Positions 12,001-33,967 of a stretch of 64,000 nt of DNA are shown here, piece by piece. The notes under the pieces are model-generated. The model saw only the letters and a program-made list of their open reading frames with translations, was not told the origin of the DNA and did no database searches. The stretch comes from Citrus sinensis. Its lineage: Eukaryota > Streptophyta > Magnoliopsida > Sapindales > Rutaceae. The DNA is taken from positions 48,153,501 through 48,217,500 of the forward strand of contig NC_068558.1 in NCBI RefSeq assembly GCF_022201045.2. The letters run 5' to 3'. How positions within the stretch are numbered: the stretch's first letter is position 1; each line of letters opens with the position of its first letter. The translations under genes and the position numbers were made by a program.

Positions 12001-15000
12001 CTTGAGGTCAATCCAACACCAGGAAAAAAATGGGTTATAGGTGAGGAAACCAAACTTTGGGGAAACTGCATGTTGGCACCCGATGCAGTCTCAATGAAGG
12101 GAAGATTGGTGGGAACCATTCCACCCAAATTTCTCTGAGAATATCCCATTGAAGTTAGAATTGAATGTGGTAGAGGAAGAGGTAAGTGACCAGAAGCTAA
12201 ATTCAGTGGAATGCGGACCTGTCCATTAAAACCATGAGCCATGGAAGATGCCATCAAGTTCACAAGATCTTGCTCTTCCTGTTGCATCCCTTGTGTCCCT
12301 GCAACAGAAGAAAATTCTTCACTCATAGCACCCAAGACCAGATCATCACCGTAACTATTAAACACACTGTTTGAATCAGCAGTAGCATCAAAGCTCTGAC
12401 AGGATGCAGTGTGACTAACAGATGAAGGATTGCCAGTTGAAGATCTAATGTCATGGCTTGCCAAAATATCAGATTCCAAGTTCTTCCTTCTACTATTCTC
12501 CAACTTTGAAGAAGACATCTGGCATTTTACACTTTCTGGGGGTTTCTTAGGCCGCCCTTGGGAGGTAACTTCACCATACGTGTCTGTAAGCTCGGGGCTA
12601 GAGCGTGTCCGTGCAAACAGATATCTACCCTTAATGTCACCAATCATTGTATCAGGTTTAAAACTTCTGTTACCTTTATCATTATTTGCATTCTGATTAA
12701 TACTAGCATCCCTTCTACCCTGATCAAAAGCCCTGGTGCTATTCAAGTTACCATAGTTTTTTTGGGTTTGTGTATGAGAAACTGTGGAAACAGAACTGAC
12801 CCTAAAAGTACTTTCAACAGGACTATTAATATGCTGAGATGAAGCACTACCATGCGATCTGTCAACTTGAGATTCACAACCAATGGAAATCTCATTTCTT
12901 TTGCCACCTAAACCTGAATTGTTGTGGAGATTCTCAGGCTCATGTTGATGGTCTCGATTTGACAATCGCAAGCGCCACAAGTCATTCCTTGGTGCATCCG
13001 GACGAACACCGCTACCATGTCTATCCCAGGTATTCATAAAAAACTGATTTACTTCATAATATAAGTCCTCATTGGGACAATCAAGTAACCTTGCCAGCCT
13101 TTTAGCCCCAAATGCAAATGCACTGCGTATCCTAAAGAAGTTACCTGGCCAATTTATATAGACAGAAGGAAACAAATTACAAAATTTCAGATAGTAGAAA
13201 ATCAGACCAAGAATTACAAGCACATCAAAAGCACTACAATCTCATAGCCGATACTCCATATTTGTGCAACAATATATTGAACTCAGACCATATAAATGTA
13301 TTTGTGCATGCTTATAAGTCTATGCTCCATACCATTTGCTTCACAGATGCAGTGAATTTTGCCAAAATGTGTGAAGGTTATCGACGGCTACACTAAAAAT
13401 AGGATCATACAAAGAATATAAAAGATGTTTTGAGGTAAAAATAGATTATTTGAAGGTTATTAACAACTACAGTGGACTCATTTAGAATTCCATCCCAAAG
13501 AAAAAGTGAAGCCAACGAAGTCACAAACACAAAACACTTGTAAACAAATAATCTTCATCATAATGCCTATTATGCCCTCTACATTTATTACAAATATTTA
13601 AATATGGAAACTCCATAGTTAATATAAACATATCCAGGATCATCTGAGCGTGACCCCTTGGGCGTAGCTCTGCTGGCCGCGTATGCATTTTGCACCCATG
13701 GTTGCCCAAGTTTGAATGATAATATGGAAAGGGTTGATGTGGATAAGGTTCTCATCCCCATCCAAACCTTCTAAAATTTTTTAAAATAAATTACTGTGTG
13801 TATTCCATGTATTTATTCTGCTCATGGTTTTATTTTATTTGTTAAAAGTAAGCATCACCACAATAAGTGTGGGAGGGTTAGAAAAAGTCACAGGTAACTT
13901 CTTGGACAATGCCCTTCTTGAGAATAAATGAACTACAAGATACCAGATGCATAAAGTGAATCAATGGAGACCAACAGAGGAGTTCACCTAGTAAAGAAGT
14001 GAAATTTTCTATTGTGAAGAAAAATTAAGAAAGTAACCAAGCAAAAACATAGTAAAATGTCATTGATAGCATACGATCATAAAAAGGTTAGCATATATGA
14101 AGCCACAACTAAACTAAAATATAACCTTCTTATGCTAACGGACATTGGAGCCCAAGCAGGCTACAAAAAAGAACCACATGAAGACAGTTCAAATTGCCAC
14201 TGGAAAATGGTAGGTAAGAAATAAAAATAAGCAAAACATTAAAAAATAGGAACAGGCAATGTTTCATAGAATTACAAAGACCATTCAAAAAAAAAAAGAA
14301 AGACATTAATTCAAAATAAAATTAATAGTATCACATTCACCATGCCAGAGGAATGAACAGATGATATCACAGTATCGCAACAAATAATAAGCCCACAAAA
14401 GAAATAGAACTGTAGTATATAGTTTGTCAATGCACCTTTACTAACACTGCGCCCAAGGTTGTTGTTTACACGCAAAGGATCGATGACATTAAAATGTTTT
14501 GAAACAAAGGGTTGGCCCTGATTTTCTTGGCCACCAGGAAAAACAGCATATGTAGAACTACAAGCATCAAGAAACAATTTGCTAAGAAGTAACACTCCAC
14601 CATCTTTTCGAGGAGGTTCCGCTGTAAAACAGACCAAGAGGAAACATCAAGCTTGACGATCACTTATGCGAGGATCAAAATTAGAATTTTCAAGCAAAAT
14701 ATCTATACCCGTTACATCTGGAAGCGAACTGATGGGTACAGGACCCCAAAGGCTTAGACAGAAGTTGTCCCAGTCAAACTTGCTAAAAAACTCCAGAAAA
14801 CGATAAAGGACCTACAAGTGGAAAGAAAAAAACTATCAGCCTACTAAAAGGACAAATGTATGAAAATAGTGAGAAAATGTTCACATAGCCACCTCAAGCG
14901 GACCAGCAAAAGAATTGTTGAAAACATGAAATATGTAAAGAACCAATGTCTCCAAGGCATATGTTGATATAAGTCCATGGTGAGCACCCAATATTCGGCT

Positions 15001-16346
15001 TTCATAATAACACCAAGCCTTTATCAGTATAATGCTGCGCTTGAAAAGATGATTCTGATTTATCATATGATCAACCTATTTAAGCAGAAAAAAACAGTTA
15101 GCAAATAAACATAATCAGCATAATGGATTACAATTTGAAAAGGAAACGTTCAATGGCAAAGTTTGAAGGATGCACCACGGACCTCCTCAAGGAAACAAAG
15201 AGTGCATAACCCACCAAGCTGGTTAAATGATATGTCTACCACAATATTTTCGACAAGGCACTTTATTATCTTTACCTACAAATAATAACAGAAAAAGAAT
15301 GTTAAATTCAGTACAAAACAAAAAACTTGAGGCAAAATGGGCTTATATAGGTTACATTAGAATTTATGCAGAAAATCCACAAACAAGAATTTAGATAACC
15401 ATAATAATAGTAACGGTTTAGTGGACAACCAAGCATCTTCTCAGATGAATAAATCACCACAATCAGTCACAACGAATAGCATTGCAACTCTGAAACTAAA
15501 CTTTCAGGGGATAAATCCAAACTTATCTCCAGTTAAAATAAATCACAAGTTTGAAATTTGTAAAACTATATCAGATGGAAATTTTGCATCAAATAATACA
15601 GGGCATGAATGGAAGATTATGAGCCACAATCTTTAGAAAACTAAGGTACGATGAAACTCACTTCTGCCTGAATGTACTGAACCTCCTTGACACGGAATTC
15701 AGCATGCTCATTCTTCTCTTCGTTTTCCAACATATCACGCACCTGATGAGCCCATGTGTCTTTCAAAGTTTGATTATCACTAAAAGCTGTTAAGTCAATG
15801 TCCCCATCTGGTAAATAGGTCTTAAGGGGTACAGACCCAAAAGTAAAAACCTGTACACGAAAATAATCACTAGTGAATAATAACATAAAATAAATGAAAA
15901 TGCAAAAGCTTAAATGATGCCAATTTGTTCAACATCCCATCACATTCACTAAATATAGGATGATTGCAACTATTTATGCCTGTGTTTTGACTAATAAGTT
16001 AAACCGGGATATACAACATTAACAAAATTCAACATAATACATGTTCATTTGGTCGAATCAATAAAGCAACGCAACATAAACAAATTCTCACATATATGTA
16101 AAAGTTGGCAACCTGACAAGGAACGCATTTGCTAATGAGGCGCTGAACATAATCTGCAACAGCATTGCGGCGTTCTTCGGAAAAGGGGTTGGGCTGAATG
16201 CAGGCAATAAGCTCTGCAGTTCTCTCCTCTGCCTTCAACCATCGTTCCGGGTCAAGTGCTCGGATCACTGAACCCGCTTCATTGGGCAATAACCCGTTTA
16301 ATAATAGCCCACTTGGTGGCTCTCTCCGCCCTTCATGCTCTCCCAT
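9005..16346 (-). CDS. Nucleotidyltransferase / PAP-OAS1 substrate-binding domain protein (copy 1, full length)
   Basis: Large plant protein of the poly(A)-polymerase/2'-5'-oligoadenylate-synthetase fold, similar to Arabidopsis AT3G61690; its biochemical role is not established. Nine exons in transcript order: 16346-16113, 15850-15662, 15275-15183, 15075-14893, 14811-14709, 14621-14436, 13144-10665, 9937-9348, 9014-9005. They join in frame to about 1355 residues. Residues 79-98 hold the nucleotidyltransferase signature FGSVPLKTYLPDGDIDL, with G83-S84 and the metal-binding pair D95/D97. The helical PAP/OAS1 substrate-binding part follows (exons 3-6). A long Ser/Gly/Asn-rich, probably disordered C-terminal half is encoded by exons 7-8. 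The last exon is the weakest call: the acceptor at 9015 gives R-G-L-stop. A 5' UTR was not defined. Most of this gene is inside copy 1 of the tandem duplication; only exon 7's end and exons 8-9 lie outside it. Confidence 0.88.
10335..10426. repeat. Two tandem copies of a 46-bp unit in an intron
   Basis: The unit starting CTCGGATGTGGGACTGCC occurs at 10335-10380 and again, essentially identical, at 10381-10426. It lies in the intron between exons 7 and 8 of the nucleotidyltransferase gene. The CCCACATCCGAG motif (on -) is reminiscent of motifs in plant dispersed repeats; that link is inference. Confidence 0.85.
13645..13805 (+). mobile_element. tRNA-derived SINE-like sequence in intron 6 (copy 1)
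   Basis: Sequence GGGCGTAGCTCTGCTGG at 13660-13676 matches an A box (TAGCTCTGCTGG). About 33 bp further on, GTTTGAATG at 13710-13718 resembles a degenerate B box. The intervening GCGTATGCATTTTGCACCCATGG is tRNA-like. No clear target duplication was found, so limits are approximate. The counterpart in the duplicated gene is at about 20813-20920. Confidence 0.5.
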
Positions 16347-18052
16347 GCAATCCCTTTAATTTTCGCTTTGCTAATCTTTACCCAAAATGTCACCGCCACC
16401 ACCACCACAACTACTAAAACAACTTGCCGATCAAACTAAGTTTCTCGAATTCAAAGTCTATCAGTTTTGTTTTTATGCTTGAGTTTCAATTATTATTAAC
16501 CTTTTTCTTAAGTAATAGTAAGAAGAATTTTAGGTTTTGACATTTATATAACCTAAAGAAGAATACAAAATTGTAAATTTATAACAAACTGAATATATTA
16601 GTAAAGAAAAAGGATATGCTGAAACCCTGAAGATAAAAATAAGAAGCAGATTAGTGATACAGATTGGTTGAGATTTATCAAAACCTAAGGAGAATGTTTT
16701 GAAGTTGGAAGCGTCGGCGAATCAACGATGGAAAGTATAAAGATAGTTGTGAGGAGGAAGAGGGACCAAATAGCAAATGTAAAAGAGGGGATTGGGGCAT
16801 TAAATTAAATGGTGGATAGATTGAGGGGCGGATCAAAATTAGGTTTCGGGAAGAAAGACAGAAAGAGAGGGCGTGTTTGGTCACAGGAATTTGGAATTGC
16901 TTTGTGGAGGCGAGGTTTTGACGATGAGGAAGTTTGTGCATTCGAGGGTTTCTAATTTATTTTTTTATTTTTAAATAATGAAAAAATATATTTGAGAAAT
17001 AGAAACAGAGAGAGAAAGAAAGAGGGAGGATGATAGAATCTGGGAAAGGAACACGGAGAGAGAGCAAGAGGGAGACAGGGCAGACGTAATAAAAAATAAA
17101 TTAAATTAAAAAATTTTTGAATTTTTTTTCTCTTACCGTTCTTTCCATTTTCCTTTTTTTATTTAAGAAGATTTTCGTTTTTATTTTTATTATTCGCCGC
17201 TGCCGTTTTGTACTTTTCCTTAATGAGTTGGGCTAGCCAATTGAAATTATGCAGGCCCATATAAGTGTTGGGCCCAATTTCTGTTGCAGGCAATTGAAGC
17301 AGGCCGCAGTAGTGATGGCAAACTACATATATAAAATAAAAAAACACTACAAGTCCACATAAAATAATATGGATTCCAATATATATATATATATAATTTA
17401 TTTTTTACTTTAGTTTCATTTATGTTTTTTAATTAATTCTATTATGTTTTTCATTTAACTTATATATTTTTATTTAATTTTAATTTAGTAAATAATTTAA
17501 TTAAAAAATAATGCGATATCCTTTTTTCGGCCGGATCCGGATTCGAATTTGGATATGTACGGATTCTATAATTTAGCATATGGATCCACATTTTTTAATA
17601 TGCGGATCCAAATTTTTCCATATCTGAATGTTCCAAATCTTTGCGAATTCAGACTGTACCCCGATATTTTTACCGTCCCCAGGCCGCAGCCTCATTGCCT
17701 TTATATACTTTTTTGTCATTTTAAAGCCATAAATTTATTTCAGCTGTCTGCGTTTATAAAAATCCACAATAAATCATATGATAAGAAATTTTGAAAATTT
17801 AGATTTTGTTTATATTCTCTCACGGGAATCATATCATCTGAATAACATAAGTTCATTTAAAACTTCGAACTGGATCAATTAATTTAAATAAATTGGATTG
17901 TATTTAATAGGATTTTAAATCAAATAATTATTTTTAATTACCATTTCGATTATGAAAATAAACAAACAATTAATGGATGGTGCAGTATCTTGATTGAAAT
18001 GCCTTGAAGGTTTCTTGTTCTCCTTTTTCTGGAAATAGCACTTTTGTTTTTC
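16347..18052 (-). promoter_or_regulatory. 5' flank/promoter of nucleotidyltransferase copy 1; also the 3' flank of copy 2
   Basis: No protein-like frame was found. The stretch includes a purine-rich segment (GAGAGAGAAAGAAAGAGG) around 16999-17080, an (AT)n run near 17380 and AT-rich DNA. It must supply the promoter of copy 1. Because of the duplication it also lies directly downstream of the truncated copy 2 gene. It holds the empty sites of the two insertions found in copy 2, near 17775 and 17928-17937. Confidence 0.6.
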
Positions 18053-21000
18053 TCACTCTAAATTGCTAATTACAAGAAGATTGTGAAACCGGCCATATTG
18101 TAAATTTTGCCAATGGCTAGGAAAGTCACTGTTGAGAATGTCAAACTTGTGCTCCAATGGTTCGACATGAGCAGACCTTCTCATAGAAATTGAAGTACTT
18201 GACGCCTCTGACTGATCAAGTCCCTCAGACATATCAAACTTTTGACCTGAATCACTGCTTCCCAGGCCCTCTTCCCCACTAAAATGGCTTGTTGATGCAT
18301 CAGAGGTTCCTGACTCAGTTGGGAAGTTGTACATTGGAAGCATCGTAAAAAAGCTAACAGGTGGACCTGTGGGATAAAAGGTCCAGGGAACAACCTCTGA
18401 ATTGTCCGGGGACCTTTGTCGAGCACCATGACCTAAGAGGACAGGAGCAATCGGAATCACTGATTCTGACCCACTTGTCTGAGCTTCTTCAGATCCGGGC
18501 ATTTGATGCCTTGGAATATGTAAAGGAGCAAGGGATTGAAGTCCTACACTCCTGTCTGGTATTTCAGACCCCATGGTTGGAAGCAGATTCCATTCTTTGT
18601 TGTCTTCATCAGCCTGAACAGAAGAATTTTCTGACACACTACTACCTTTTCCATACACTGGAGAAGCAGTAGAAGCCATTTTTCTACCCCTTTCTTCTTT
18701 AGCTGGTTTTGAGACCTTTGCCGATGATCCTTCCCAAGAACTCTCAGAATTGGTTTTACTTTTCACAGAACTTGTATGTGAAGCAGGCATAGATCTTGAA
18801 CTGGCAGATCTGTCATCAAAGTAAACCTCGTTACCTCTACTATCTAGATAATGGAAAGAATCTTCATGATCTTCCCTCATTGACTCCCTGGCATCTTTGT
18901 TGAATTTATGTGGAGCTCTTCTAGCACTGCCAGAGGCACCTATCTGAGATGAAGGAAGAAGGTTATAACCAGCTGAAGTTGATTGCTGCTTATCGTCAGA
19001 CTGAAGCATCTCAAAATTTCCATTCTCAAGATCAAATCCGCCACCAGAACCCCGGTCCTGCTGATGCCAGTAATCATTATCACCCTCCATAGGGTTCGTT
19101 TCCACAGGACCAAAATTTTCATTACCGCGTTCAAGTGAATCTTCCGAGCTTGAGGTCAATCCAACACCAGGAAAAAAATGGGTTAATGGTGAGGAAACCA
19201 AACTTTGGGGAAACTGCATGTTGGCACCCGATGCAGTCTCAATGAAGGGAAGATTGGTGGGAACCATTCCACCCAAATTTCTCTGAGAATATCCCATTGA
19301 AGTTAGAATTGAATGTGGTAGAGGAAGAGGTAAGTGACCAGAAGCTAAATTCAGTGGAATGTGGACCTGTCCATTAAAACCATGAGCCATGGAAGATGCC
19401 ATCAAGTTCACAAGATCTTGCTCTTCCTGTTGCATCCCTTGTGTCCCTGCAACAGAAGAAAATTCTTCACTCATAGCACCCAAGACCAGATCATCACCGT
19501 AACTATTAAACACACTGTTTGAATCAGCAGTAGCATCAAAGCTCTGACAGGATGCAGTGTGACTAACAGATGAAGGATTGTCAGTTGAAGATCTAATGTC
19601 ATGGCTTGCCAAAATATCAGATTCCAAGTTCTTCCTTCTACTATTCTCCAACTTTGAAGAAGACATCTGGCATTTTACACTTTCTGGGGGTTTCTTAGGC
19701 CGCCCTTGGGAGGTAACTTCACCATACGTGTCTGTAAGCTCGGGGCTAGAGCGTGTCCGTGCAAACAGATATCTACCCTTAATGTCACCAATCATTGTAT
19801 CAGGTTTAAAACTTCTGTTACCTTTATCATTATTTGCATTCTGATTAATACTAGCATCCCTTCTACCCTGATCAAAAGCCCTGGTGCTATTCAAGTTACC
19901 ATAGTTCTTTTGGGTTTGTGTACGAGAAACTGTGGAAACAGAACTGACCCTAAAAGTACTTTCAACAGGACTATTAATATGCTGAGATGAAGCACTACCA
20001 TGCGATCTGTCAACTTGAGATTCACAACCAATGGAAATCTCATTTCTTTTGCCACCTAAACCTGAATTGTTGTGGAGATTCTCAGGCTCATGTTGATGGT
20101 CTCGATTTGACAATCGCAAGCGCCACAAGTCATTCCTTGGTGCATCCGGACGAATGCCGCTACCATGTCTATCCCGGGTATTCATAAAAAACTGATTTAC
20201 TTCATTATATAAGTCCTCATTGGGACAATCAAGTAACCTTGCCAGCCCTTTAGCCCTAAATGTAAATGCCGTGCGTATCCTAAAGAAGTTACCTGGCCAA
20301 TTTATATAGACAGAAGGAAACAAATTACAAAATTTCAGATAGTAGAAAATCAGACCAAGAATTACAAGCACATGAAAAGCACTACAATCTCATAGCCGAT
20401 ACTCCATATTTGTGCACCAATATATTGAACTCAGACCATATAAATGTATTTGTGCAAGCTTATAAGTATATGTTCCATACCATTTGCTTCACAGATGCAG
20501 TGAATTTTGCCAAAATGTGTGAAGGTTATCGACGGCTACACTAAAAATAGGATCATACAAAGAATATAAAAGATGTTTTGAGGTAAAAATAGATTATTTG
20601 AAGGTTATTAACAACTACAGTGGACTCATTTAGAATTCCATCCCAAAGAAAAAGTGAAGCCAATGAAGTCACAAACACAAAACACTTGTAAACAAATAAA
20701 TTATATTATAAAAGGTTATCTTCATCATAATGCCTATTAAGCCCTTTACATTTATTAAAAATATTTAAATATAGAAACCCCATAGTTAATATAAACATAT
20801 CTAGGATCATCTGAGCGTGACACCTTGGGCGTAGCTCTGCTGGCCGCGTATGCACTTTGCACCCACGGTCACCCAACTTTGAATGATAATATGGAAAGGG
20901 TTGATGCGGGTAAGGTTCTCATCCCCATGTATTTATTCTGCTCTTGGTTTTATTTCATTTGTTAAAAGTAAGCACCACCACAATAAGTGTGGGAGGGTTA

Positions 21001-23462
21001 GAAAAAGTCACAGGTAACTTCTTAGACAATGCCCTTCTCGAGAATAAATCAACTACAAGATACCAGATGCATAAAGTGAATCAATGGAGACCAACACAGG
21101 AGTTCACCTAGTAAAGAAGTGAAATTTTCTATTGTGAAGAAAAATTAAGAAAGTAACCAAGCAAAAACAGATTAAGATGCCATTCATAGCATACAATCAT
21201 AAAAAGGTTAGGCATATATGAAGCCACAACTAAACTAAAATATAACCTGCTTATGCTAACCGACATTGGAGCCCAAGCAGGCTACAAAAAAGAACCACAT
21301 GAAGACAGTTCAAATTGCCACTGGAAAATGGTAGGTAAGAAATAAAAATAAGCAAAACATTAAAAAATAGGAACAGGCAATGTTTCATAGAATTACAAAG
21401 ACCATTCAAAAAAAAAAAGAAAGACATTAATTCAAAATAAAATTAATAGTATCACATTCACCATGCCAGAGGAATGAACAGAAGTGATCACAGTATCGCA
21501 ACAAATAATAAGCCCACAAAAGAAATAGAACTGTAGTATATAGTTTGTCAATGCACCTTTACTAACACTGCGCCCAAGGTTGTTGTTTACACGCAAAGGA
21601 TCGATGACATTAAAATGTTTTGAAACAAAGGGTTGGCCCTGATTTTCTTGGCCACCAGGAAAATCAGCATATGCATACCTACAAGAATCAAGAAACGATT
21701 TGCTAAGAAGTAACACTCCACCATCTTTTCGAGGAGGTTCCGCTGTAAAACAGACCAAGGGGAAACATCAAGCTTGATGATCACTTATGCGAGGATCAAA
21801 ATTAGAATTTTCAAGCAAAATATCTATACCCGTTACATCTGGAAGCAAACTGATGGGTACAGGACCCCAAAGGCTTAGACAGAAGTTGTCCCAGTCAAAC
21901 TTGCTAAAAAACTCTAGAAAACGATAAAGGACCTACGAGTGGAAAGATAAAAACTATCAGACTACTAAAAGTACAAATGTATGAAAATAGTGAGAAAATG
22001 TTCACATAGCCACCTCAAGCGGACCAGCAAAAGAACCATTGAAAACATGAAATATGTAAAGAACCAATGTGACCAAGGCATAAGATGATATTAGTCCATG
22101 GTGACCACCCAATATTCGGCTTTCATAATAACACCAAGCCTTTATCAGTATAATGCTGCGCTTGAAAAGATGATTCTCATTTATCAAATGATCAACCTAT
22201 TTAAGCAGAGAAAAACAATTAGCAAATAAACATAATCATCATAATGGATTACAATTTGAAAAGGAAACGTTCAATGGCAAAGTTGATGCACCACGGACCT
22301 CATCAAGGAAACAAAGAGTGCATAACCCACCAAGCTGGTTAAATGCTATGTCTACAACAAAATTATCGACAAGGCACTTTATTATCTTTACCTACAAATA
22401 ATAACAGAAAAAGAATGTTAAATTCAGTACAAAACAAAAAACTTGAGGCAAAATGGGCTTATATAGGTTACATTAGAATTTATGCAGAAAATCCACAAAT
22501 AAGAATTTAGATAACCATAATAACAGTAACGGTTTAGTGGACAATCAAGCATCTTCTCAGATAAATAAATCACCACAATCAGTCACAACGAATAGCATTG
22601 CAACTCTGAAACTAAAATTTCAGGGGATAAATCCAAACTTATCTCCAGTTAAAATAAATCACAAGTTTGAAATTTGTAAAACTACATCAGACGGAAATTT
22701 TCCATCAAATAATACAGGGCATGAATGGAAGACTATGAGCCACAATCTTTAGAAAACCAGGGTACGATGAAACTCACTTCTGCCTGAATGTACTGAACCT
22801 CCTTGACACGGAATTCAGCATGCTCATTCTTCTCTTCATTTTCCAACATATCATGCACCAGATGAGCCCATGTGTCCTTCAAAGTTTGATCATCACTAAA
22901 AGCTCCTAAGTCAATGTCCCTATCTGGTAAATAGGTCTTAAGGGGTACAGACCCAAAAGTAAAAACCTGTACACAAAAATAATCACTAGTGAATAATAAC
23001 ATAAAATAAATGAAAATGCAAAAGCTTAAATGATGCCAATTTGTTCAACACCCCATCACATTCACTAAATATAGGATGATTGCAACTATTTATGCCTGTG
23101 TTTTGACTAATAAGTTAAACCGGGATATACAACATTAACAAAACTCAACATAATACATGTTCATTGGGTCGAATCAATAAAGCAACGCAGCATAAACAAA
23201 TTCTCACACATATGTAAAAGTTGGCAACCTGACAAGGAAAGCATTGGATAATGAGGCGCCGAACATAAGCTGCAACAGCATTGCGGCGTTCTTCGGAAAA
23301 GGGGTCGGGCTGAATGCGGGCAATAAGCTCTGCAGTTATCTCCTCTGCCTTCAACCATCGTCCCGGGTCAAGTGGTCGGATCACTGAACCTGCTTCATTG
23401 GGCAATAACCCGTTTAATAATAGCCCACTTGGTGGCTCTCTCCGCCCTTCATGCTCTCCCAT
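18053..23462 (-). CDS. Nucleotidyltransferase / PAP-OAS1-type protein, duplicated copy with truncated C-terminus
   Basis: Tandem paralogue of the gene at 9005-16346. Seven exons in transcript order: 23462-23229, 22966-22778, 22391-22299, 22196-22014, 21932-21830, 21742-21557, 20292-18053. Exons 1-6 have exactly the lengths of copy 1 and all join in frame, giving about 1075 residues with no premature stop. The duplication breakpoint cuts exon 7: after the shared YGRF the frame runs into former 5'-flank DNA, adding HNLLVISNLE before TGA. The last ~280 residues (end of exon 7, exons 8-9) and the native 3' UTR are lost. The signature reads FGSVPLKTYLPDRDIDL: the Gly just before the DxD is Arg in this copy, while D95/D97 remain. 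Whether it is expressed, or is a young pseudogene, cannot be told from sequence. Confidence 0.8.
20813..20920 (+). mobile_element. SINE-like sequence in intron 6 (copy 2, deleted tail)
   Basis: Duplicate of the element at about 13645-13805, with the same A-box-like segment. Relative to copy 1, 47 bp (13762-13808) is missing, and copies of CCAT flank the missing segment in copy 1. Confidence 0.45.
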
Positions 23463-24904
23463 GCAATCCCTTTAATTTTCGCTTTGCTAATCTTTACCCA
23501 AAATGTCACCGCCACCGCCACCACAACTACTAAAACAACTTGCCGATCAAACTAAGTTTCTCGAATTCAAAGTCTATCAGTTTTGTTTTTATGCTTGAGT
23601 TTCAATTATTATTAACCTTTTTCTTAAGTAATAGTAAGAAGAATTTTAGGTTTTGACATTTATATAACCTAAAGAAGAATACAAAATTGTAAATTTATAA
23701 CAAACTGAATATATTAGTAAAGAAAAAGGATATGCTGAAACCCTGAAGATAAAAATAAGAAGCAGATTAGTGATACAGATTGGTTGAGATTTATCAAAAC
23801 CTAAGGAGAATGTTTTGGAAGTTGGAAGCGTCGGCGAATCAACGATGGAAAGTATAAAGATAGTTGTGAGGAGGAAGAGGGACCAAATAGCAAATGTAAG
23901 AGAGGGGATTGGGGCATTAAATTAAATGGTGGATAGATTGAGGGGCGGATCAAAATTAGGTTTCGGGAAGAAAGACAGAAAGAGGGCGTGTTTGGTCACA
24001 GGAATTTGGAATTGCTTTGTGGAGGCGAGGTTTTGACGATGAGGAAGTTTGTGCATTCGAGGGTTTCTAATTTATTTTTTTATTTTTAAATAATGAAAAA
24101 ATATATTTGAGAAATAGAAACAGAGAGAGAAAGAAAGAGGGAGGATGATAGAATCTGGGGAAGGAACACGGAGAGAGAGCGAGGAGGAGACAGGGCAGAC
24201 GTAATAAAAAAATAAATTAAATTAAAAAAAAATTTGAATTTTTTTTCTCTCACCGTTCTTTCCAATTTCCGTTTTTTCTTTAAGAAGATTTTCGTTTTTA
24301 TTTTTATTATTTGCCGCTGCCGTTTTGTACTTTTCTTTAACGAGTTCGGCTAGCCAATTGAAATTATGCAGGCCCATATAAGTGTTGGGCCCAATTTCTG
24401 TTGCAGGCAATTGAAGCAGGGCGCAGTAGTGATGGCAAAATACATAAATAAAATTATAAAAACACTACAAATCCACATAAAATAATATGGATCCAATATA
24501 TATATATATATATATATATAATTTTTTTTTTACTTTAGTTTCACTTATGTTTTTTAATTAATTCTATTATGTTTTTCATTTAACTTATACATTTTTCATT
24601 TAAATTTAATTTTGTAAATAATTTAATTAAAAAATAATGCAATATCCTTTTTTCGGTTGGATCTGAAATCGAATCGAGATTCGTACGGATTCTACAATTT
24701 AGCATCTAGATTCACATTTTTTAATGTGCGGATTCGAACTTTTCCGTATCTAAATGTTCCAGATCTTTACAGATTTAGGTTGTACCCCAATTTTTTTGTC
24801 GTCCCTAGGTCGCAGCCTCATTGTCTTTATGTACTTTTTTTGTCATTTTAGAGCAATAAATTTATTTCAGCTGTCTGCATTTATAAAAATCCATAATAAA
24901 TCAT
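23463..24904 (-). promoter_or_regulatory. 5' flank/promoter of nucleotidyltransferase copy 2
   Basis: Closely similar to 16347-17775. The purine-rich segment around 24115-24190 and an (AT)n run near 24498-24522 are conserved. There is no protein-coding frame. The inserted Mutator-like element begins about 2.0 kb upstream of the start codon, so the proximal promoter is intact. Confidence 0.55.
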
Positions 24905-24919
24905 ATGATGGGAAATTTT

Positions 24920-25342
24920 TTTTTTTTTTTGAAATGGAAGAATTTTCATTAACCAAAAGAATTACAGATGATTCAATAACCACAGAGGTGGAATGATGTT
25001 CCACTCCTGGGGACCTGACAAAGAACTTACTGCTCGTGCCATAGAGTGAGCAGCAAAGTTCGCAGACCTACGCACAAACGAGAATTGTACTTCTCCTATA
25101 GAGTCAACAAGAGCCCGACAATCTTCGATAATTAGCCCAAACCCATTTGGACCTGCAAACTCCTCAGCCAAAGCTCGAAATACTTGTAAACAGTCCATTT
25201 CTATAATAACACAAGGAAACTGCATCCCTTTAATCCAGCTGAGAGCTTCTCGAACGCCAAGTGCTTCTGCCTCCCGTGCTCCAAAACTTCCTGTCATCCC
25301 AGCACCCCTGAGCTGCCAAAAAGCAACCTCCAAAAAGCAACA
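24920..25342 (-). mobile_element. 5'-truncated LINE insertion (RNase H-like 3' end)
   Basis: A 423-bp insertion absent from the paralogous site in copy 1. It is flanked by 15-bp direct repeats ATGATGGGAAATTTT (24905-24919 and 25343-25357). A poly-T run at its left end is the poly-A tail of an element inserted on the minus strand. The minus frame 25333-24962 encodes about 120 residues of an RNase H-like (RVT_3) domain, with the features AREAEALGVREAL, IEMDCLQVFRAL and FVRRSANFAAHSMA. This domain sits at the 3' end of many plant L1-type LINEs. The reverse transcriptase is missing, as expected from 5' truncation. Confidence 0.88.
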
Positions 25343-25699
25343 ATGATGGGAAATTTTAAAAATTTAGATTTTGTTTATATTCTCTCAAGGGAATCATATC
25401 ATCGGAATAACATAAGTTCATTTAAAACTTCGAACTGGATCAATTAATTTAAATAAAATTAGATTGTATTTAATAGGAATTTAAATCAAATAATTATTTT
25501 TAAGAAAAATTCTATAGTACCGTAATAAAAATTACGGTATTAATGCCGTAATTACTGTACACCGTTGGATTAAATCAACAGTATGCAATAACTATAACAT
25601 AATAAAAAAATTTGTAAATTTTTTTCATTAACCGGTTGTTAACCGGCTAAACATTTATTTAAAAAAATTAACTGGTTAAAATTTTCAAAATTATATACA

Positions 25700-26650
25700 T
25701 ATATATATATATTTTAAAACCGAATCTACAAAAATCCAAATAGAATCTCATAATTCGAATCTACAAAAATCCAAATAGAATCTCATAATTCGAAGGGCAC
25801 AACATCGAGTCTAAGAAATTGCAGCACGCCGGATCTTGTATTTTCGAAGCGATTGGGCTTGCTGGCTAACCCAAATTTTGTTTTCCTCAATCGTTCCTCT
25901 TTTCCTGCCAATCATCGCTTTGAAAACTGCCTGAAGCCAAAAAGAAGCGAGAAATAAGAAGCTCTACAACGGTTCATGTTGGTGAAGGGGCTGAGTTTGT
26001 GTTCCTGCCCATCACCGATTTGAAATCTGCTTGCAGCAAAACAGAAGCGGATTTGAAATTTGCCCATCGCCAAGGCGTTCCTCTTTAAATCCATCACTAA
26101 ATACCAATAGATTATTTAATCGGACAAGAAGAAGCTCTACAACAACTTGGTTGAGGAGAACCAGGCTGTGTTCGTATTCGTGAAGGGGTTTCGGAACAAC
26201 GATACCGGCTGGGCATCAGTGATTCAGGAGGTAAACTCTTCTTAAGACTTTTTTTAACCCTTTTTAAAGTTTTTTAAGTGGATTTTTTTATAATTTTTGG
26301 ATACTGGGCATCTGGATTGGTTGTGGTATTTTGTTTGGTTTCCAAGAGAATTAAGGGATAAAGAAATTTTGATGAGATTTGACAGTGCCTGAAGCGGAGT
26401 ACCAGGTGTTGATCATAAGTTGTTGCTGCTGCCCTCAATCTTATTGATTGGAAGAGAAGGCAAGGCAAGTTCCAGCCACTGATTCCCCTCCACCGCGTTT
26501 GCATTGTTGTTAATTCCACCAAGTAAGCCTATTTTTGGTATATTTGTTTGTTTGCTACAAATAATTTCAACATAAAATTTAATAGAATTGTTTTGTGTCA
26601 CTTGGGTTAATGAAGAAATAGAAACTGAACCTTAATTTGGTGCGATGTAT
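25700..26650 (+). other. Gene-like, possibly captured segment inside the Mutator-like element
   Basis: This part is less AT-rich than the rest of the element. It contains a 36-codon open stretch at 26123-26230 that ends in a good donor (CAGGAG|GTAAACT); translated it includes KKLYNNLVEENQAVF and FRNNDTGWASVIQE. A further exon-like block may lie near 26385-26460. The frame has a stop just upstream and no recognised family. Mutator-like elements often carry captured gene pieces; that this is one is inference. The direct repeat CGAATCTACAAAAATCC occurs twice around 25722-25775. Confidence 0.3.
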
Positions 26651-26929
26651 AGGTTTGGACGAAATTAAAAGTAAATTTCGTTAATTGTTGTGCCCTTGAT
26701 TTTGTATTCTCATGTGCATTGATTTTGGTTGGAAGTTTAATAGAATACGAGGTTCATCAACTGCAAATAATTTCAATATCAATGAATTTCATCAACTCTT
26801 AGTTCAATAGAAAGTGAATTATTGTTTATACAAATAAATTTACCAGTTAGAATGAGTTCCACTGTGGTAATGAAGGGAAAATTAAGTCTAGAGTTAGCCT
26901 AGAGAAGCATGTTTGAAACGTAGGGATGA

Positions 26930-27690
26930 TTTGCTGCTGTATTTGGGATGATTTGCTGTTGTTCTTGGGTTAAATTTTTCTGGTGTTTTGGGCTTCATTT
27001 GCTGCTGATTTTGGGTTAAATTTTTTGCTGTTTCTGGGTAAATTAGCTGCTGTTTTTAGTCTAATTTTTTGCTGTTTTTGGATCAATTTACTGCTATTTT
27101 TGGGTTATATTTTCTGCTGTTTGGAGGTAAATTTTTCTGGTGTTTTGGGCTTCATTTGCTACTGTTTTTGTGTTAAATTTTCCGCTGTTTCTCGGTAAAT
27201 TTGCTGCTGTTTTTCAGTTAAATTTTTTGCTGTTTCTGGATAAATTTACTGCTGTTTTTGGGTTAAATTTTCTGCTGTTTTGTGGTTAAATTTTCTGCTG
27301 TTTTGGGCCTCATTTGCTGCTGTTTTTGTGTTAAATTTTCTGCTACTTCTGGGTAAATTTGCTGCTTTTTTTCAATTAAATTTTCTGCTGTTTCTAGATA
27401 AATTTACTGCTATTTTTGGGTTAAATTTTCTGCTGCTTCTGGGTAAATTTGCTGCTGTTTTTCAATTAATTTTTCTGCTGTTTCTGGATAAATTTACTGC
27501 TGTTTTTGGGTAAAATTTTCGAGTGTTTTGGGCTTCAGTTGCTGCTATTTCTGTGTTAAAATTCTGCTGGTTTTGGGTTAATTTGCTGCCGTATTTCAGT
27601 TAAATTTTTTTTCTGTTTTTGGATAAATTTACTACTACTTTTGGGTTAATTTTTTTGCTGTTTCCGGATATATTTGCTGTTGTTTTTGTG
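26930..27690. repeat. Minisatellite, 45-bp period made of two ~22-bp half units
   Basis: About 16 imperfect units alternate TTTTTGGGTTAAATTTTCTGCTG with TTTCTGGATAAATTTACTGCTG. The + strand is rich in T and G with almost no C other than in CTGCTG. The 45-bp period is 15 codons, so a + frame stays open with a repeated FLLFLDKFTAIFGLN-like peptide. This is judged a by-product of the repeat, not a gene. Confidence 0.85.
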
Positions 27691-28004
27691 TATGGAGCTG
27701 GCCGGAAAATGGTCATGATGCATTTTGAATGGAGAAGGATGGGGATTGATAGTAAAAGTTGCTTGTGTTGTTCCTGCTGCTACTTGCTTCATTTGAGCTT
27801 CTACAATCCATTGATAATAGAGGGAAGAAGAAAGAGATGATGAGAAAGTAGATTTTATCTCAAGTTTATTTAGTTAAGTTGGATGGATTTTATCTCAACT
27901 CATTAAAAAGTAGATCAGGTTAGAATTTCACTAACCCTATCAAACCCAACTCATGCCCACCCTTATATCATTCTATCTAAATCATAAAATGCCAATAATC
28001 AACG

Positions 28005-31000
28005 TTAGAGTGGTAAATTGGTCTACAAAATTTAAAAAAAAATAAAAAATAGAAAAAAAACTAGTAAATTAATGTTGGAGTTGTAAATTATAAGAAAAAA
28101 TTGTAAACAAAACAAAAACTTAGAAAAATGACATAAAACTTGTAAATTGACATTAAGTGTGAAATGAAACAAAAAATATGTAAATCATACATAAAACTAG
28201 TAAATTAATGAAAAATTTGGTAAATTAATATTAGAGTTGAAAATTGTAAGAAGAACTTGTAAACAAAACAAAAACTTAGAAAAATGACATATAACTAGTA
28301 AATTGACATTAATTGTGAAATGAAACAAAAAATATGTAAATCACACATAAAATTAGTAAATTAATGAAAAAATGAGTAAATTAATGTTGGAGTTGTAAAT
28401 TGCAAGAAGAACTTGTAAACAAAATAAAAATTTAGAAAAATGACATAGAACTTGTAAATTGACATTAAGTGTGAAATGAAACAATAAATTTGTAAATCAC
28501 ACATAAAACTAGTAAATTAATGGAAAAATGAGTAAATTAATGTTGGAGTTGTAAATTGCAAGAAGAACTTGTAAACAAAACAAAAACTTAGAAAAATGAC
28601 ATAGAACTTGTAAATTGACATTAAGTGTGAAATAAAACAATAAATTTGTAAATCACACATAAAACTAGTAAATTAATGGAAAAATTGGTAAATTAATGTT
28701 AGAGTTGTAAATTGCAAGAAAAACTTGTAAACAAAAAAAAATTTTAGAAAAATGACATAGAACTTGCCAATTGACATTAAGTGTGAAATAAAAAATTAAA
28801 TTTGTAAATCACACATAAAACTAGTAAATTAATGGAAAAATGAGTAAATTAATGTTGGAGTTGTAAATTGCAAGAAGAACTTGTAAACAAAACAAAAACT
28901 TAGAAAAATGACATAGAACTTGCAAATTGATATTAAGTATGAAATGAAACAAAAAATATGTAAATCACACATAAAACTAGTAAATTAATGGAAAAATTGG
29001 TAAATTAATGTTAGAGTTGTAAATTGTAAGAAGAACTTGTAAACAAAACAAAAACTTAGAAAAATGACATACAACTAGTAAATTGACATTAATTGTGAAA
29101 TGAAACAAAAAAACATGTAAATCACACCTAAAACTAGTAAATTGATGGAAAAATTGGTAAATTAATGTTGGAGTTGTAAATTGTAAGAAGAACTTGTAAA
29201 CAAAACAAAAACTTAGAAAAATGACATAGAACTTGTAAATTGACATTAAGTGTGAAATGAAACAAAAAATATGTAAATGACACCTAAAACTAGTAAATTG
29301 ATGGAAAAATTGGTAAATTAATGTTGTAGTTGTAAATTGCAAGAAGAACTTGTATACAAAACAAAAACTTAGAAAAATGACATAGAACTTGTAAATTGAC
29401 ATTAAGTGTGAAATGAAACAATAAATGTGTAAATCACACATAAAACTAGTAAATTGATGGAAAAATGAGTAAATTAATGTTGGAGTTGTAAATTGCAAGA
29501 AGAACTTGTAAACAAAACAAAAACTTAGAAAAATGACATAGACCTTGTAAATTGACATTAAGTGTGAAATGAAACAATAAATTTGTAAATCACACATAAA
29601 ACCAGTAAATTAATGAAAAAATGAGTAAATTAATGTTGGAGTTGTAAATTGCAAGAAGAACTTGTAAACAAAACAAAAACTTAGAAAAATGACATAGAAC
29701 TCGCAAATTGACATTAAGTGTGAAATGAAACAATAAATTTGTAAATCACACATAAAACCGGTAAATTAATGAAAAAATGAGTAAATTAATGTTGGAGTTG
29801 TAAATTGTAAGAAGAACTTGTAAACAAAACAAACTTAGAAAAATGACATAGAACTAGTAAATTGACATTAAGTGTGAAATGAAACAATAAATATGTAAAT
29901 CACACATAAAACTAGTAAATTGATGGAAAAATGAGTAAATTAATGTTGGAGTTGTAAATTGCAAGAAGAACTTGTAAACAAAACAAAAACTTAGAAAAAT
30001 GACATAGAACTTGTAAATTGACATTAAGTGTGAAATGAAACAATTAATTTGTAAATCACACATAAAACTAGTAAATTAATGGAAAAATGAGTAAATTAAT
30101 ATTGGAGTTGTAAATTGTAAGAAGAACTTGTAAACAAAACAAAATTAGAAAAATGACATAGAGCTAATAAATTGACATTAAGTGTGAAATGAAACAAAAA
30201 ATATGTAAATCACACATAAAACTAGTAAATTGATGGAAAAATGAGTAAATTAATGTTGGAGTTGTAAATTGCAAGAAGAACTTGTAAACAAAACAAAAAC
30301 TTAGAAAAATGACATAGAACTTGTAAATTGACATTAAGTGTGAAATGAAACAATTAATTTGTAAATCACACATAAAACTAGTAAATTAATGGAAAAATGA
30401 GTAAATTAATATTGGAGTTGTAAATTGTAAGAAGAACTTGTAAACAAAACAAAATTAGAAAAATGACATAGAGCTAATAAATTGACATTAAGTGTGAAAT
30501 GAAACAAAAAATATGTAAATCACACATAAAACTAGTAAATTGATGGAAAATTGAGTAAATTAATGTTAGAGTTGTAAATTGTAAGAAGAACTTGTAAACA
30601 AAACAAAAACTTAGAAAAATGACATAGAACTTGTAAATTGACATCAAGTGTGAAATGAAACAATAAATTTGTAAATCACACATAAAACTAGTAAATTAAT
30701 GGAAAAATGAGTAAATTAATGTTGGAGTTGTAAATTGCAAGAAGAACTTGTAAACAAAACAAAAACTTAGAAAAATGACATAGAACTTGTAAATTGACAT
30801 TAAGTGTGAAATAAAACAATAAATTTGTAAATCACACATAAAACTAGTAAATTAATGGAAAAATTGGTAAATTAATGTTAGAGTTGTAAATTGCAAGAAA
30901 AACTTGTAAACAAAAAAAAAATTTAGAAAAATGACATAGAACTTGCCAATTGACATTAAGTGTGAAATAAAAAATTAAATTTGTAAATCACACATAAAAC

Positions 31001-33655
31001 TAGTAAATTAATGGAAAAATGAGTAAATTAATGTTGGAGTTGTAAATTGCAAGAAAAACTTGTAAACAAAAAAAAATTTTAGAAAAATGACATAAAACTT
31101 GCCAATTGACATTAAGTGTGAAATAAAAAATTAAATTTGTAAATCACACATAAAACTAGTAAATTAATGGAAAAATGAGTAAATTAATGTTGGAGTTGTA
31201 AATTGCAAGAAGAACTTGTAAACAAAACAAAAACTTAGAAAAATGACATAGAACTTGCAAATTGATATTAAGTATGAAATGAAACAAAAAATATGTAAAT
31301 CACACATAAAACTAGTAAATTAATGGAAAAATTGGTAAATTAATGTTAGAGTTGTAAATTGTAAGAAGAACTTGTAAACAAAACAAAAACTTAGAAAAAT
31401 GACATACAACTAGTAAATTGACATTAATTGTGAAATGAAACAAAAAAATATGTAAATGACACCTAAAACTAGTAAATTGATGGAAAAATTGGTAAATTAA
31501 TGTTGTAGTTGTAAATTGCAAGAAGAACTTGTATACAAAACAAAAACTTAGAAAAATGACATAGAACTTGTAAATTGACATTAAGTGTGAAATGAAACAA
31601 TAAATGTGTAAATCACACATAAAATTAGTAAATTGATGGAAAAATGAGTAAATTAATGTTGGAGTTGTAAATTGCAAGAAGAACTTGTAAACAAAACAAA
31701 AACTTAGAAAAATGACATAGAACTTGTAAATTGACATTAAGTGTGAAATGAAATAATAAATGTGTAAATCACACATAAAACCAGATGGAAAAATGAGTAA
31801 ATTAATGTTGGAGTTGTAAATTGCAAGAAGAACTTGTAAACAAAACAAAAACTTAGAAAAATGACATAGAACTTGTAAATTGACATTAAGTGTGAAATGA
31901 AACAATAAATTTGTAAATCACACATAAAACCAGTAAATTAATGAAAAAATGAGTAAATTAATGTTGGAGTTGTAAATTGCAAGAAGAACTTGTAAACAAA
32001 ACAAAAACTTAGAAAAATGACATAGAACTCGCAAATTGACATTAAGTGTGAAATGAAACAATAAATTTGTAAATCACACATAAAACCGGTAAATTAATGA
32101 AAAAATGAGTAAATTAATGTTGGAGTTGTAAATTGTAAGAAGAACTTGTAAACAAAACAAACTTAGAAAAATGACATAGAACTAGTAAATTGACATTAAG
32201 TGTGAAATGAAACAATAAATATGTAAATCACACATAAAACTAGTAAATTGATGGAAAAATGAGTAAATTAATGTTGGAGTTGTAAATTGCAAGAAGAACT
32301 TGTAAACAAAACAAAAACTTAGAAAAATGACATAGAACTTGTAAATTGACATTAAGTGTGAAATGAAACAATTAATTTGTAAATCACACATAAAACTAGT
32401 AAATTAATGGAAAAATGAGTAAATTAATATTGGAGTTGTAAATTGTAAGAAGAACTTGTAAACAAAACAAAATTAGAAAAATGACATAGAGCTAATAAAT
32501 TGACATTAAGTGTGAAATGAAACAAAAAATATGTAAATCACACATAAAACTAGTAAATTGATGGAAAATTGAGTAAATTAATGTTAGAGTTGTAAATTGG
32601 AAGAAGAACTTGTAAACAAAACAAAAACTTAGAAAAATGACATAGAACTTGTAAATTGACATTAAGTGTGAAATGAAACAATAAATTTGTAAATCACACA
32701 TAAAACTAGTAAATTAATGAAAAAAATTGGTAAATTAATGTTGGAGTTGTAAATTGTAAGAAGAACTTGTAAACAAAATAAAAACTTAGAAAAATGACAT
32801 ACAACTAGTAAATTGACATTAAGTGTGAAATGAAACAAAAAGTGTGTAAATCACACATAAAACTAGTAAATTGATGGAAAACTGAGTAAATTAATGTTGG
32901 AGTTGTAAAATGCAAGAAGAACTTGTAAACAAAACAAAAACTTAGAAAAATGACATACAACTAGTAAATTGACATTAATTGTGAAATGAAACAAAAAATG
33001 TGTAAATCACACATAAAACTAGTAAATTGATGGAAAAATGAGTAAATTAATGTTGGAGTTGTAAAATGCAAGAAGAATTTGTAAACAAAACAAAAACTTA
33101 GAAAAATGACATACAACTAGTAAATTGACATTAATTGTGAAATGAAACAAAAAATGTGTAAATCACACATAAAACTAGTAAATTAATGGAAAAATTGGTA
33201 AATTAATGTTAGAGTTGTAAATTGTAAGAAGAACTTGTAAACAAAACAAAAACTTATAAAAATGACATACAACTAGTAAATTGACATTAATTGTGAAATG
33301 AAACAAAAAATGTGTAAATCACACATAAAATTAGTAAATTGATGGAAAAATGAATAAATTAATATTGGAGTTGTAAATTGTAAGAAGAACTTGTAAACAA
33401 AACCAAAATTTAGAAAAATTACATAGAACTTGTAAATTGACATTAAGTGTTAAATAAAACAAAAAATTTGTAAACCACACATACAACTAGTAAATTAATG
33501 GAAAAATAGGTAAATTAATGTTAGAGTTGTAAATTGTAAGAAGAATTTGTAAACAGAACAAAAACTTGTAAATGTTACATATAACTTGTAAATCAACATT
33601 AACTTGTAAAAGTTTCATAAAACTTGTAAATCACACATAAAATTAGTAAATGTAA
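28005..33655. repeat. 156-bp AT-rich tandem satellite, ~36 copies
   Basis: Monomer starts marked by GAAATGAAAC or GAAATAAAAC fall at 28161, 28317, 28473, 28629 and 28785, an exact 156-bp step, and the array continues to about 33655. Each monomer contains GTAAATCACACATAAAACTAGTAAATT, GTAAATTAATGTTGGAGTTG, AAGAAGAACTTGTAAACAAAAC and TTAGAAAAATGACATA blocks. Shorter TAAATT-centred sub-repeats suggest an older short unit. Edge monomers are degenerate and the centre is homogeneous, as expected of unequal exchange. Multiples of about 310 bp and 2.2-2.3 kb are repeated at a higher level. The 52-codon period keeps minus frames open up to 206 codons; these are not considered genes. Confidence 0.95.
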
Positions 33656-33967
33656 CCTGAAACTTGAACAAAAAAGAGTAATTACCTGCTATTTAGGTAA
33701 CAGGTTACTTATTTATTTAGAATTAATGGTAGAGATTTTTTATTCAAATCTAACGGTCCACGTCCATTACGACATCAATGCCGTAAATTTAGCTACGGCA
33801 TTATAGAATGACCCTTATTTTTAATTACCATTTCGATTATGAAAATAAACAAACAATTAATGGATGGTGCAGTATCTTAATTGAAATGCCTTGAAGGTTT
33901 CTTGTTGTCCTTTTTTTTTTTGGTTTTTCTCACTCTAAATTGGTAATTACAAGAAGATTGTGAAACC

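What the first reader, a model, noticed from the sequence alone, without database searches (positions are those of the whole stretch)
25504..33814. An 8.3-kb Mutator-like element that carries a 156-bp satellite as cargo, with its empty site preserved in the tandem paralogue
The sequence shows matching ends (GAAAAATTCTATAGTACCGT against GGGTCATTCTATAATGCCGT) and a TATTTTTAA target duplication. The same target is intact and single in the duplicated block at 17928-17937. So gene-like DNA, a 45-bp minisatellite and ~5.6 kb of satellite moved, or were built up, inside one transposon. Elements that disperse satellite seeds are known in general, but a nearly whole-cargo satellite in a MULE-type element with proof of the empty site is unusual, and I do not recognise this family.
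Basis: partly seen in the sequence, partly recalled or inferred. Interest (0 to 1): 0.85.

Follow-up and report, generated by a model that had tools for sequence, protein, structure and literature searches.

The report
Satellite-bearing FAR1-type MULE transposon family
A cut-and-paste plant transposon in which a long tandem-repeat array is a standing part of the element, carried from site to site with it and changing length in place, which gives a clear look at how satellite DNA can arise inside a mobile element.

Summary
Window 25504-33814 (8,311 bp) is a Mutator-like (MULE) insertion with imperfect ~70-bp inverted ends and a 10-bp duplication, TTATTTTTAA; the same site is empty at 17928-17937. 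A 156-bp array fills 67% of it. The window's genome holds a family of such elements. In the 21 loci read as long stretches (the best right-end matches) the array always sits beside the right end, and 20 of 26 end pairs show a target duplication of at least 8/9 bp, against 29 of 648 mismatched pairs. Long relatives encode a FAR1-type MULE transposase (one 746-codon frame) and a second protein with homologues weakly like DUF1985/PMD; the window copy lacks both. So the satellite is not cargo but an inherited subterminal module, each monomer about eight ~20-bp units, five of which keep a conserved GTAAA core. A sister copy of the same insertion (C3) and a close copy at another site (C5) have nearly the same monomer order, while the window array has about 14 more monomers from a recent block duplication: it travelled whole, then most simply grew in place. 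What the array does is inferred. Similar arrays are known in other DNA transposons (Jozin CACTA, Tetris): a new variant of a known kind.

The parts
25494..25503 (+). left copy of the 10-bp target-site duplication TTATTTTTAA
25504..33814 (+). whole element: non-autonomous FAR1-type MULE derivative, 8,311 bp
25504..25573 (+). left terminal inverted repeat, imperfect, about 70 bp
   Evidence: 26 left-end matches in the genome with the window query, 43 with a relative's left end
25721..26928 (+). left internal region ('gene-like DNA'); no open frame of 120 codons or more
26929..27688 (+). 22/45-bp minisatellite, shared with other members
27689..28055 (+). spacer before the array; parts of it found in 12 of 21 loci. 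In the long C5 relative both genes lie between the minisatellite and this segment
28056..33651 (+). 156-bp tandem array, about 36 copies, each about eight 19.5-bp units, several with a GTAAA core
28511..32551 (+). part of the array that holds two copies of a block of monomers (about 28511-30223 and 30690-32551) present once in the two closest relatives
33651..33814 (+). conserved right end of 164 bp including the right terminal inverted repeat
   Evidence: 40 scored matches at 88-100%; interior 36-mer 50 matches, control 0
33815..33824 (+). right copy of the target-site duplication
17928..17937 (+). empty target site in the tandem paralogue

Best explanation
Window 25504-33814 is a non-autonomous deletion derivative of a FAR1-type MULE family. 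The family's right subterminal region carries an inherited tandem array of 156-bp monomers, each made of about eight ~20-bp units. Shown: MULE-type ends with 9-10-bp duplications; a FAR1 + MULE-domain transposase in long members; the array joined to the right end at constant distance in the loci read; nearly collinear monomer order between copies at different sites; different array lengths at the same insertion, the longer one holding a block duplication. Inferred: the window array is the one that changed (gain, not loss in the others); the transposase of long members moved this copy in trans by cut and paste; lengths change by unequal exchange or replication slippage. More speculative: the GTAAA-core units are a binding platform for an element-encoded protein, so the array is kept by selection, as tandem repeats are thought to be in VANDAL elements.
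For: Right end: 40 scored matches of 98 candidates; terminal 22-mer 136 matches at up to 3 mismatches, reversed control 0. Target duplications: 20 of 26 pairs at 8/9 or better versus 29 of 648 mismatched pairs. Array in 21 of 21 loci read as long stretches; full monomers 6-34 per locus, 342 in 20 loci. Transposase: MULE domain E 9.4e-27, FAR1 E 6.8e-18, inside the element C3:30200767-30223605, whose own duplication is AAATTTATA. Order and block duplication. Core GTAAA 98.7% against 93.5% elsewhere; the true placement is the best of 156 rotations.
Against: Six of 26 pairs do not reach 8/9, two of them with apparently exchanged flanks. Two of 40 array clusters had no family end in the listings. 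The 20 fetched loci were the top right-end matches, so they are not a random sample. One of five more distant ends read has no repeat units (L088). The window copy encodes no transposase. The three closest copies are almost equidistant (7, 9 and 7 differences in about 2,310 bases), so gain in the window rests on parsimony and on the likeness of the two blocks; a loss in a common ancestor of the other two is not excluded. Array length in one assembly can be wrong. The core motif was chosen after seeing the repeat. Gene 1 itself has no Pfam match, its homologues only hits below cut-off, and it is not among the 150 listed loci of a DUF1985 search.
Confidence: 0.86

Rival explanations
1. The array is a passive passenger: a subterminal minisatellite that expands and contracts by slippage and unequal exchange, with no role in transposition or silencing.
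For: Array size varies widely (6-34 full monomers). Block duplication is a normal outcome of unequal exchange. Nearest neighbours are mostly in the same element or close group, 246 of 342 against 10.8% by chance, as expected of local turnover.
Against: None of the 21 loci read lacks monomers (L038 has only two hits, none of them a full monomer), and a 1.07-kb mini-copy keeps four monomers (L053). The GTAAA core is more conserved than the rest. Two related ends sharing only about 50 terminal bases keep the same ~20-bp unit, in the other orientation (L086, L087).
Confidence: 0.5
2. The array is a functional platform: its units bind the transposase or the gene-1 protein, as VANC binds tandem motifs in Arabidopsis VANDAL elements, to counter silencing or help transposition.
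For: VANC targets often form tandem repeats in non-coding parts of VANDALs and VANC carries DUF1985 (PMC5735166, passages). Gene 1 or pieces of it lie in long family members and homologues hit DUF1985 or PMD weakly. Core conservation; monomers kept in deletion derivatives.
Against: DUF1985 likeness is below the curated cut-off in 3 of 4 homologues tried and absent in the fourth, and absent for the family's own gene 1. The transposase is FAR1-type. No binding or methylation data.
Confidence: 0.35
3. Chance insertion of a MULE next to, or into, an unrelated pre-existing satellite array.
For: None found in these calls.
Against: The empty paralogous site has no array; the array lies inside the duplication; array and right end are linked at 33 of 40 clusters and 21 of 21 loci.
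Confidence: 0.01
4. The longer array in the window is an assembly error rather than a real difference.
For: Two other copies hold runs of N (L023, L037; seen as X), so these elements are hard to assemble (or the stretches are withheld).
Against: The two blocks are not identical throughout: 8 of 11 monomer pairs differ by at most 1.3%, three by 4-8%, and one copy has an extra monomer, which a simple mis-join would not make.
Confidence: 0.12

Closest known systems
Jozin CACTA-like element of Chenopodium quinoa (PMC8978399; passages and section 10 seen)
   Same: DNA transposon of 16.5 kb with a 5,550-bp array of 32.5 monomers of 171 bp near the 3' end, in several copies
   Different: Other superfamily; the authors speak of additions to the element; here the array is in 21 of 21 loci read, and monomer order is followed between copies
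Tetris foldback element of Drosophila virilis (PMC4079207; abstract and outline seen)
   Same: Transposon with internal ~220-bp tandem repeats that became kb-size satellite arrays
   Different: Repeats are in both inverted ends; animal element; here one end only
VANDAL elements and VANC (PMC5735166; passages seen)
   Same: Tandem repeats in non-coding parts with fast gain and loss; a second protein with DUF1985 and DUF287. That VANDALs are MULEs is recalled
   Different: Here FAR1-type transposase; DUF1985 likeness weak; repeat core GTAAA rather than YAGTATTAY; binding untested
CitMule of clementine (PMC4334395; passages seen)
   Same: Citrus MULE with FAR1, SWIM and MULE domains, 9-bp A/T-rich duplications, short degenerate inverted ends

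Membership tests
Mutator-like elements (MULE superfamily) | 9-11-bp target-site duplication | tested here: met
   10 bp in the window; 20 of 26 pairs at 8/9 or better, control 29 of 648
Mutator-like elements (MULE superfamily) | inverted terminal repeats (may be short or degenerate) | tested here: met
   70 bp imperfect, score 27 versus shuffle maximum 4 of 1,000
Mutator-like elements (MULE superfamily) | MULE transposase domain in autonomous members | tested here: met
   PF10551 E 9.4e-27 in a 746-codon frame inside a family member; no open frame of 120 codons outside the array in the window copy
FAR1/Jittery-type MULEs | FAR1 DNA-binding domain before the MULE domain, SWIM after it | tested here: met
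   FAR1 46-136 E 6.8e-18, MULE 258-351; SWIM at 549-564 only E 0.066, below cut-off. No tree was built, so Jittery kinship is untested
CitMule | same terminal sequences | not testable with these tools
   ends were not in the passages seen (figure and supplement)
CitMule | about 6.9 kb, no tandem array reported | tested here: not met
   members here span about 1.1 to 22.8 kb and carry monomers
VANDAL | non-FAR1 (VANA-type) transposase (recalled) | tested here: not met
   FAR1 domain found
VANDAL | VANC protein with DUF1985 and DUF287 | tested here: inconclusive
   gene 1 itself no hit; DUF1985 E 0.064-0.12 in 3 of 4 homologues; gene 1 not among 150 listed DUF1985 loci
VANDAL | tandem motif repeats bound by VANC | tested here: inconclusive
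   tandem motif present; binding not testable here
Foldback elements (Tetris type) | long inverted ends built of tandem repeats on both sides | tested here: not met
   monomers only in one orientation in the 21 stretches, beside the right end; 10 of these stretches reach the left end

The most novel reading that the evidence does not exclude
A FAR1-type MULE lineage has independently built a VANDAL/VANC-like system: a satellite-size array of GTAAA units serves as a dense docking platform for an element-encoded second protein (gene 1) or the transposase, so that array growth is selected and a satellite DNA family arises as a by-product of transposon counter-defence.
Probability: 0.25. Interest if true: 0.8.

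Novelty: new variant of a known kind. Interest (0 to 1): 0.52.

Why it matters
It gives a worked case of a satellite forming in a transposon with the steps separable: a ~20-bp unit, an eight-unit 156-bp monomer, spread by transposition with order kept, then a length change at one insertion whose empty site and sister copy are both known. It makes testable whether such arrays are passive or serve the transposon, and the arrays may be useful length-polymorphic markers.

Tried and rejected
Rejected: chance insertion beside an array; foldback element; membership of VANDAL. Pfam gave nothing for the family's own gene 1; homologues gave only hits below cut-off; a DUF1985 search of the genome scored 150 of 332 candidates, and none of the listed loci is gene 1. 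phmmer of the transposase against solved structures gave none at E 0.01. A first BLAST attempt to show the block duplication printed nothing; monomer-by-monomer alignment replaced it. The conservation test against the window's own consensus (2 of 156 rotations as good) was repeated with an element-weighted majority base (1 of 156). On re-check the C5 copy proved not to be a clear outgroup, so 'gain in the window' is now called the simpler reading and confidence was lowered from 0.88 to 0.86. Paper searches; I saw no paper in their listings on a satellite array in a FAR1-type MULE, but listings are capped and the library is partial. PMC6377768 (clementine repeats; passages) names four major satellites, whose monomer sequences I did not see, so identity with this one is untested. 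Dropped before the count of 26 pairs: L048/L049 (both ends damaged), L052/L063 (not a convincing pair), L059 (no partner). L032 counts as a miss, though 14 flanking bases are identical on its two sides. The 40 clusters come from the rows that one search showed (about 150 of 410 matches); the ends used come, whose listings are partly cut. Part of the printout was cut; its counts were repeated.

Full report
What is there. Window 25504-33814 is flanked by TTATTTTTAA on both sides, and the paralogous block has this decamer once, at 17928-17937, with aligned flanks. The outer 70 bp are an imperfect inverted pair (score 27, best of 1,000 shuffles 4). Inside lie, left to right: left end, about 1.2 kb without an open frame of 120 codons, a 22/45-bp minisatellite (26929-27688), a 367-bp spacer, the 156-bp array (28056-33651, about 36 copies) and a 164-bp right end.

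It is a family. The window lies in a 299.7-Mb genome of 11 contigs. The right end gave 40 scored matches of 98 candidates at 88-100% identity. The terminal 22-mer gave 136 matches at up to 3 mismatches with 0 for the reversed control (some of these are left ends and some belong to relatives), and an interior 36-mer gave 50 with 0 for its control. Left ends gave 26 and 43 matches with two queries. For 26 end pairs, 20 have a duplication of at least 8 of 9 bases, 12 of them exact at the junction (the window and L019 being one event); mismatched pairs reach 8/9 in 29 of 648 cases. The six misses are L032 (14 identical bases on both sides, out of the test's register), L053, the two 7/9 pairs L050/L061 and L058/L068, and L041/L023 and L042/L024, whose flanks look exchanged. 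Three further candidates were dropped before the count (see Tried and rejected).

The array belongs to the family. I read 20 of the 39 other right-end loci as 10-kb stretches, the best-scoring ones. With the window these are 21 loci: all have the right end and all have monomers beside it in one orientation. In 19 of the 20 with full monomers the last one ends 312-315 bp from the terminus; L036 differs. Full monomers number 6 to 34 per locus, 342 in all; L038 has none full. Of 40 array clusters in the shown rows, 33 have a right end within 3 kb on the same strand, 31 a left end within 25 kb, 26 both, and 2 neither; chance for a right end is about 0.0007 per cluster. A 1.07-kb mini-copy (L053) is little more than two ends and four monomers, although its flanks show no duplication.

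How the array evolved. The monomer consensus has a 19.5-bp sub-period (mean identity 0.484; shuffles 0.371, s.d. 0.015; 0 of 500 reach it), and the tail just before the right end is a plain ~20-bp repeat (33561-33666). So a ~20-bp unit probably came first and an eight-unit block became the 156-bp monomer. Of five more distant ends read, L084 and L085 carry diverged units in the same orientation, L086 and L087 carry the ~20-bp unit in the opposite orientation while sharing only about 50 terminal bases with the window's right end, and L088 has none. Nearest neighbours of monomers are in the same element or close group for 246 of 342 (chance 10.8%), and the mean difference is 6.8% within elements and 8.9% between groups.

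Transposed whole, then changed in length. L019 (C3:49.53 Mb) has the window's own duplication and flanks: its left 3.4 kb is 99.7% identical to window 21481-24919 and its right 300 bp is identical, so it is a duplicate (or a misplaced second haplotype) of the same insertion. L020 (C5:1.60 Mb) is almost the same element at another site, with duplication ATATAGGTAC. By anchor count L019 and L020 have 20 and 19 monomers, in nearly the order of window monomers 0-12, 15 and 28-33 (a few have their best match elsewhere), whereas the window has 34; its monomers 2-12 recur at 16-27, 8 of 11 pairs differing by at most 1.3% and three by 4-8%. The mean over all window pairs is 10.5%, inflated by one double-length monomer. 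Outside the array the three copies differ at 7, 9 and 7 of about 2,310 bases, so L020 is not a clear outgroup. Gain of about 14 monomers in the window is the simplest reading (two of three copies are short, and the two blocks are very alike); loss in a common ancestor of L019 and L020 is not excluded. Order kept between two sites shows that the array moved with the transposon.

Genes. The element at C3:30200767-30223605 (22.8 kb, duplication AAATTTATA on both sides) contains an open frame of 746 codons with FAR1 (E 6.8e-18) and MULE (E 9.4e-27) domains and a sub-threshold SWIM. Other members hold parts of this gene; in the C5:21.3-Mb element the 358-codon frame has FAR1 but no MULE domain. A second gene lies between minisatellite and transposase in that C5 element. 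By coordinates, gene-1 matches lie in six other family members, two of them only short pieces (C6:7.29 Mb, C4:6.25 Mb) and several with stops. It has no Pfam hit itself; three of four homologues have weak hits to DUF1985, two to PMD and two to DUF7745, all below cut-off. The window copy has neither gene, so it must have been moved in trans; that is inference.

What the array does. The GTAAA core, five exact copies in the majority monomer, is 98.7% conserved against 93.5% elsewhere, and no other rotation of the mask does as well (1 of 156); none of the 16 positions under 80% lies in it. I chose the motif after seeing the repeat. With monomers kept in every locus read, this mildly favours a role. 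VANC proteins of Arabidopsis VANDALs bind motifs amplified as tandem repeats and carry DUF1985 (PMC5735166, passages): a parallel, not a membership. A passive array remains at least as likely.

Known kinds. Jozin CACTA elements carry a 5.5-kb array of 171-bp monomers near the 3' end (PMC8978399, section 10) and Tetris gave rise to satellite arrays (PMC4079207, abstract). CitMule (PMC4334395, passages) is a Citrus FAR1-type MULE without a reported array in the text searched. In the listings I saw no paper on a satellite array in a FAR1-type MULE. Hence: new variant of a known kind.

Noticed in passing
window 24919-25343: 424-bp insert absent from the tandem paralogue and from L019; poly-T at one end, RNase H-like domain on the minus strand (RVT_3, E 9e-12), GATGGGAAATTTT on both sides: probably a truncated LINE that arrived after the segmental duplication.
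   Followed up: partly
L023 and L024 (C4:6.25 Mb and C4:5.96 Mb): The left flank of one copy and the right flank of the other share the 9 bases TGCAATTCA; the reciprocal pair does not match. Recombination between inverted copies (about 290-kb inversion) or a scaffold mis-join; L023 holds about 5 kb of N.
   Followed up: partly
L086, L087 (C6:9.73 Mb, C8:13.46 Mb): Ends of related elements with the same ~20-bp unit in opposite orientation to the terminus; their other ends were not read.
   Followed up: partly
C9:5944603 (+) and C9:5946822 (-): Two right ends face each other about 2.2 kb apart.
   Followed up: no
window 10938-17792 and 18086-24919: Tandem paralogous blocks, 95.6-97.4% identical; long minus-strand frames without Pfam match at 10566-13223 and 18053-20371 (885 and 772 codons).
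   Followed up: no
L022:233-1105 and L026:5539-6015: Cytochrome P450 and NB-ARC coding fragments; by coordinates the first lies inside its element and overlaps the start of the minisatellite match, so it may be captured; the left end of the second element was not found.
   Followed up: no
and loci, e.g. C1:16.23 Mb, C5:25.82 Mb: Relatives of gene 1 and of the FAR1 transposase lie 3-6 kb apart on opposite strands at several loci: perhaps other two-gene FAR1-type MULE families.
   Followed up: no
C4:19391872-19401900: Seven DUF1985 hits at a regular 1,607-bp spacing: a tandem array.
   Followed up: no
L032 (C9:22.58 Mb): 14 identical flanking bases (ATATAAATTCCACC) on both sides of the element instead of 9-10.
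   Followed up: no
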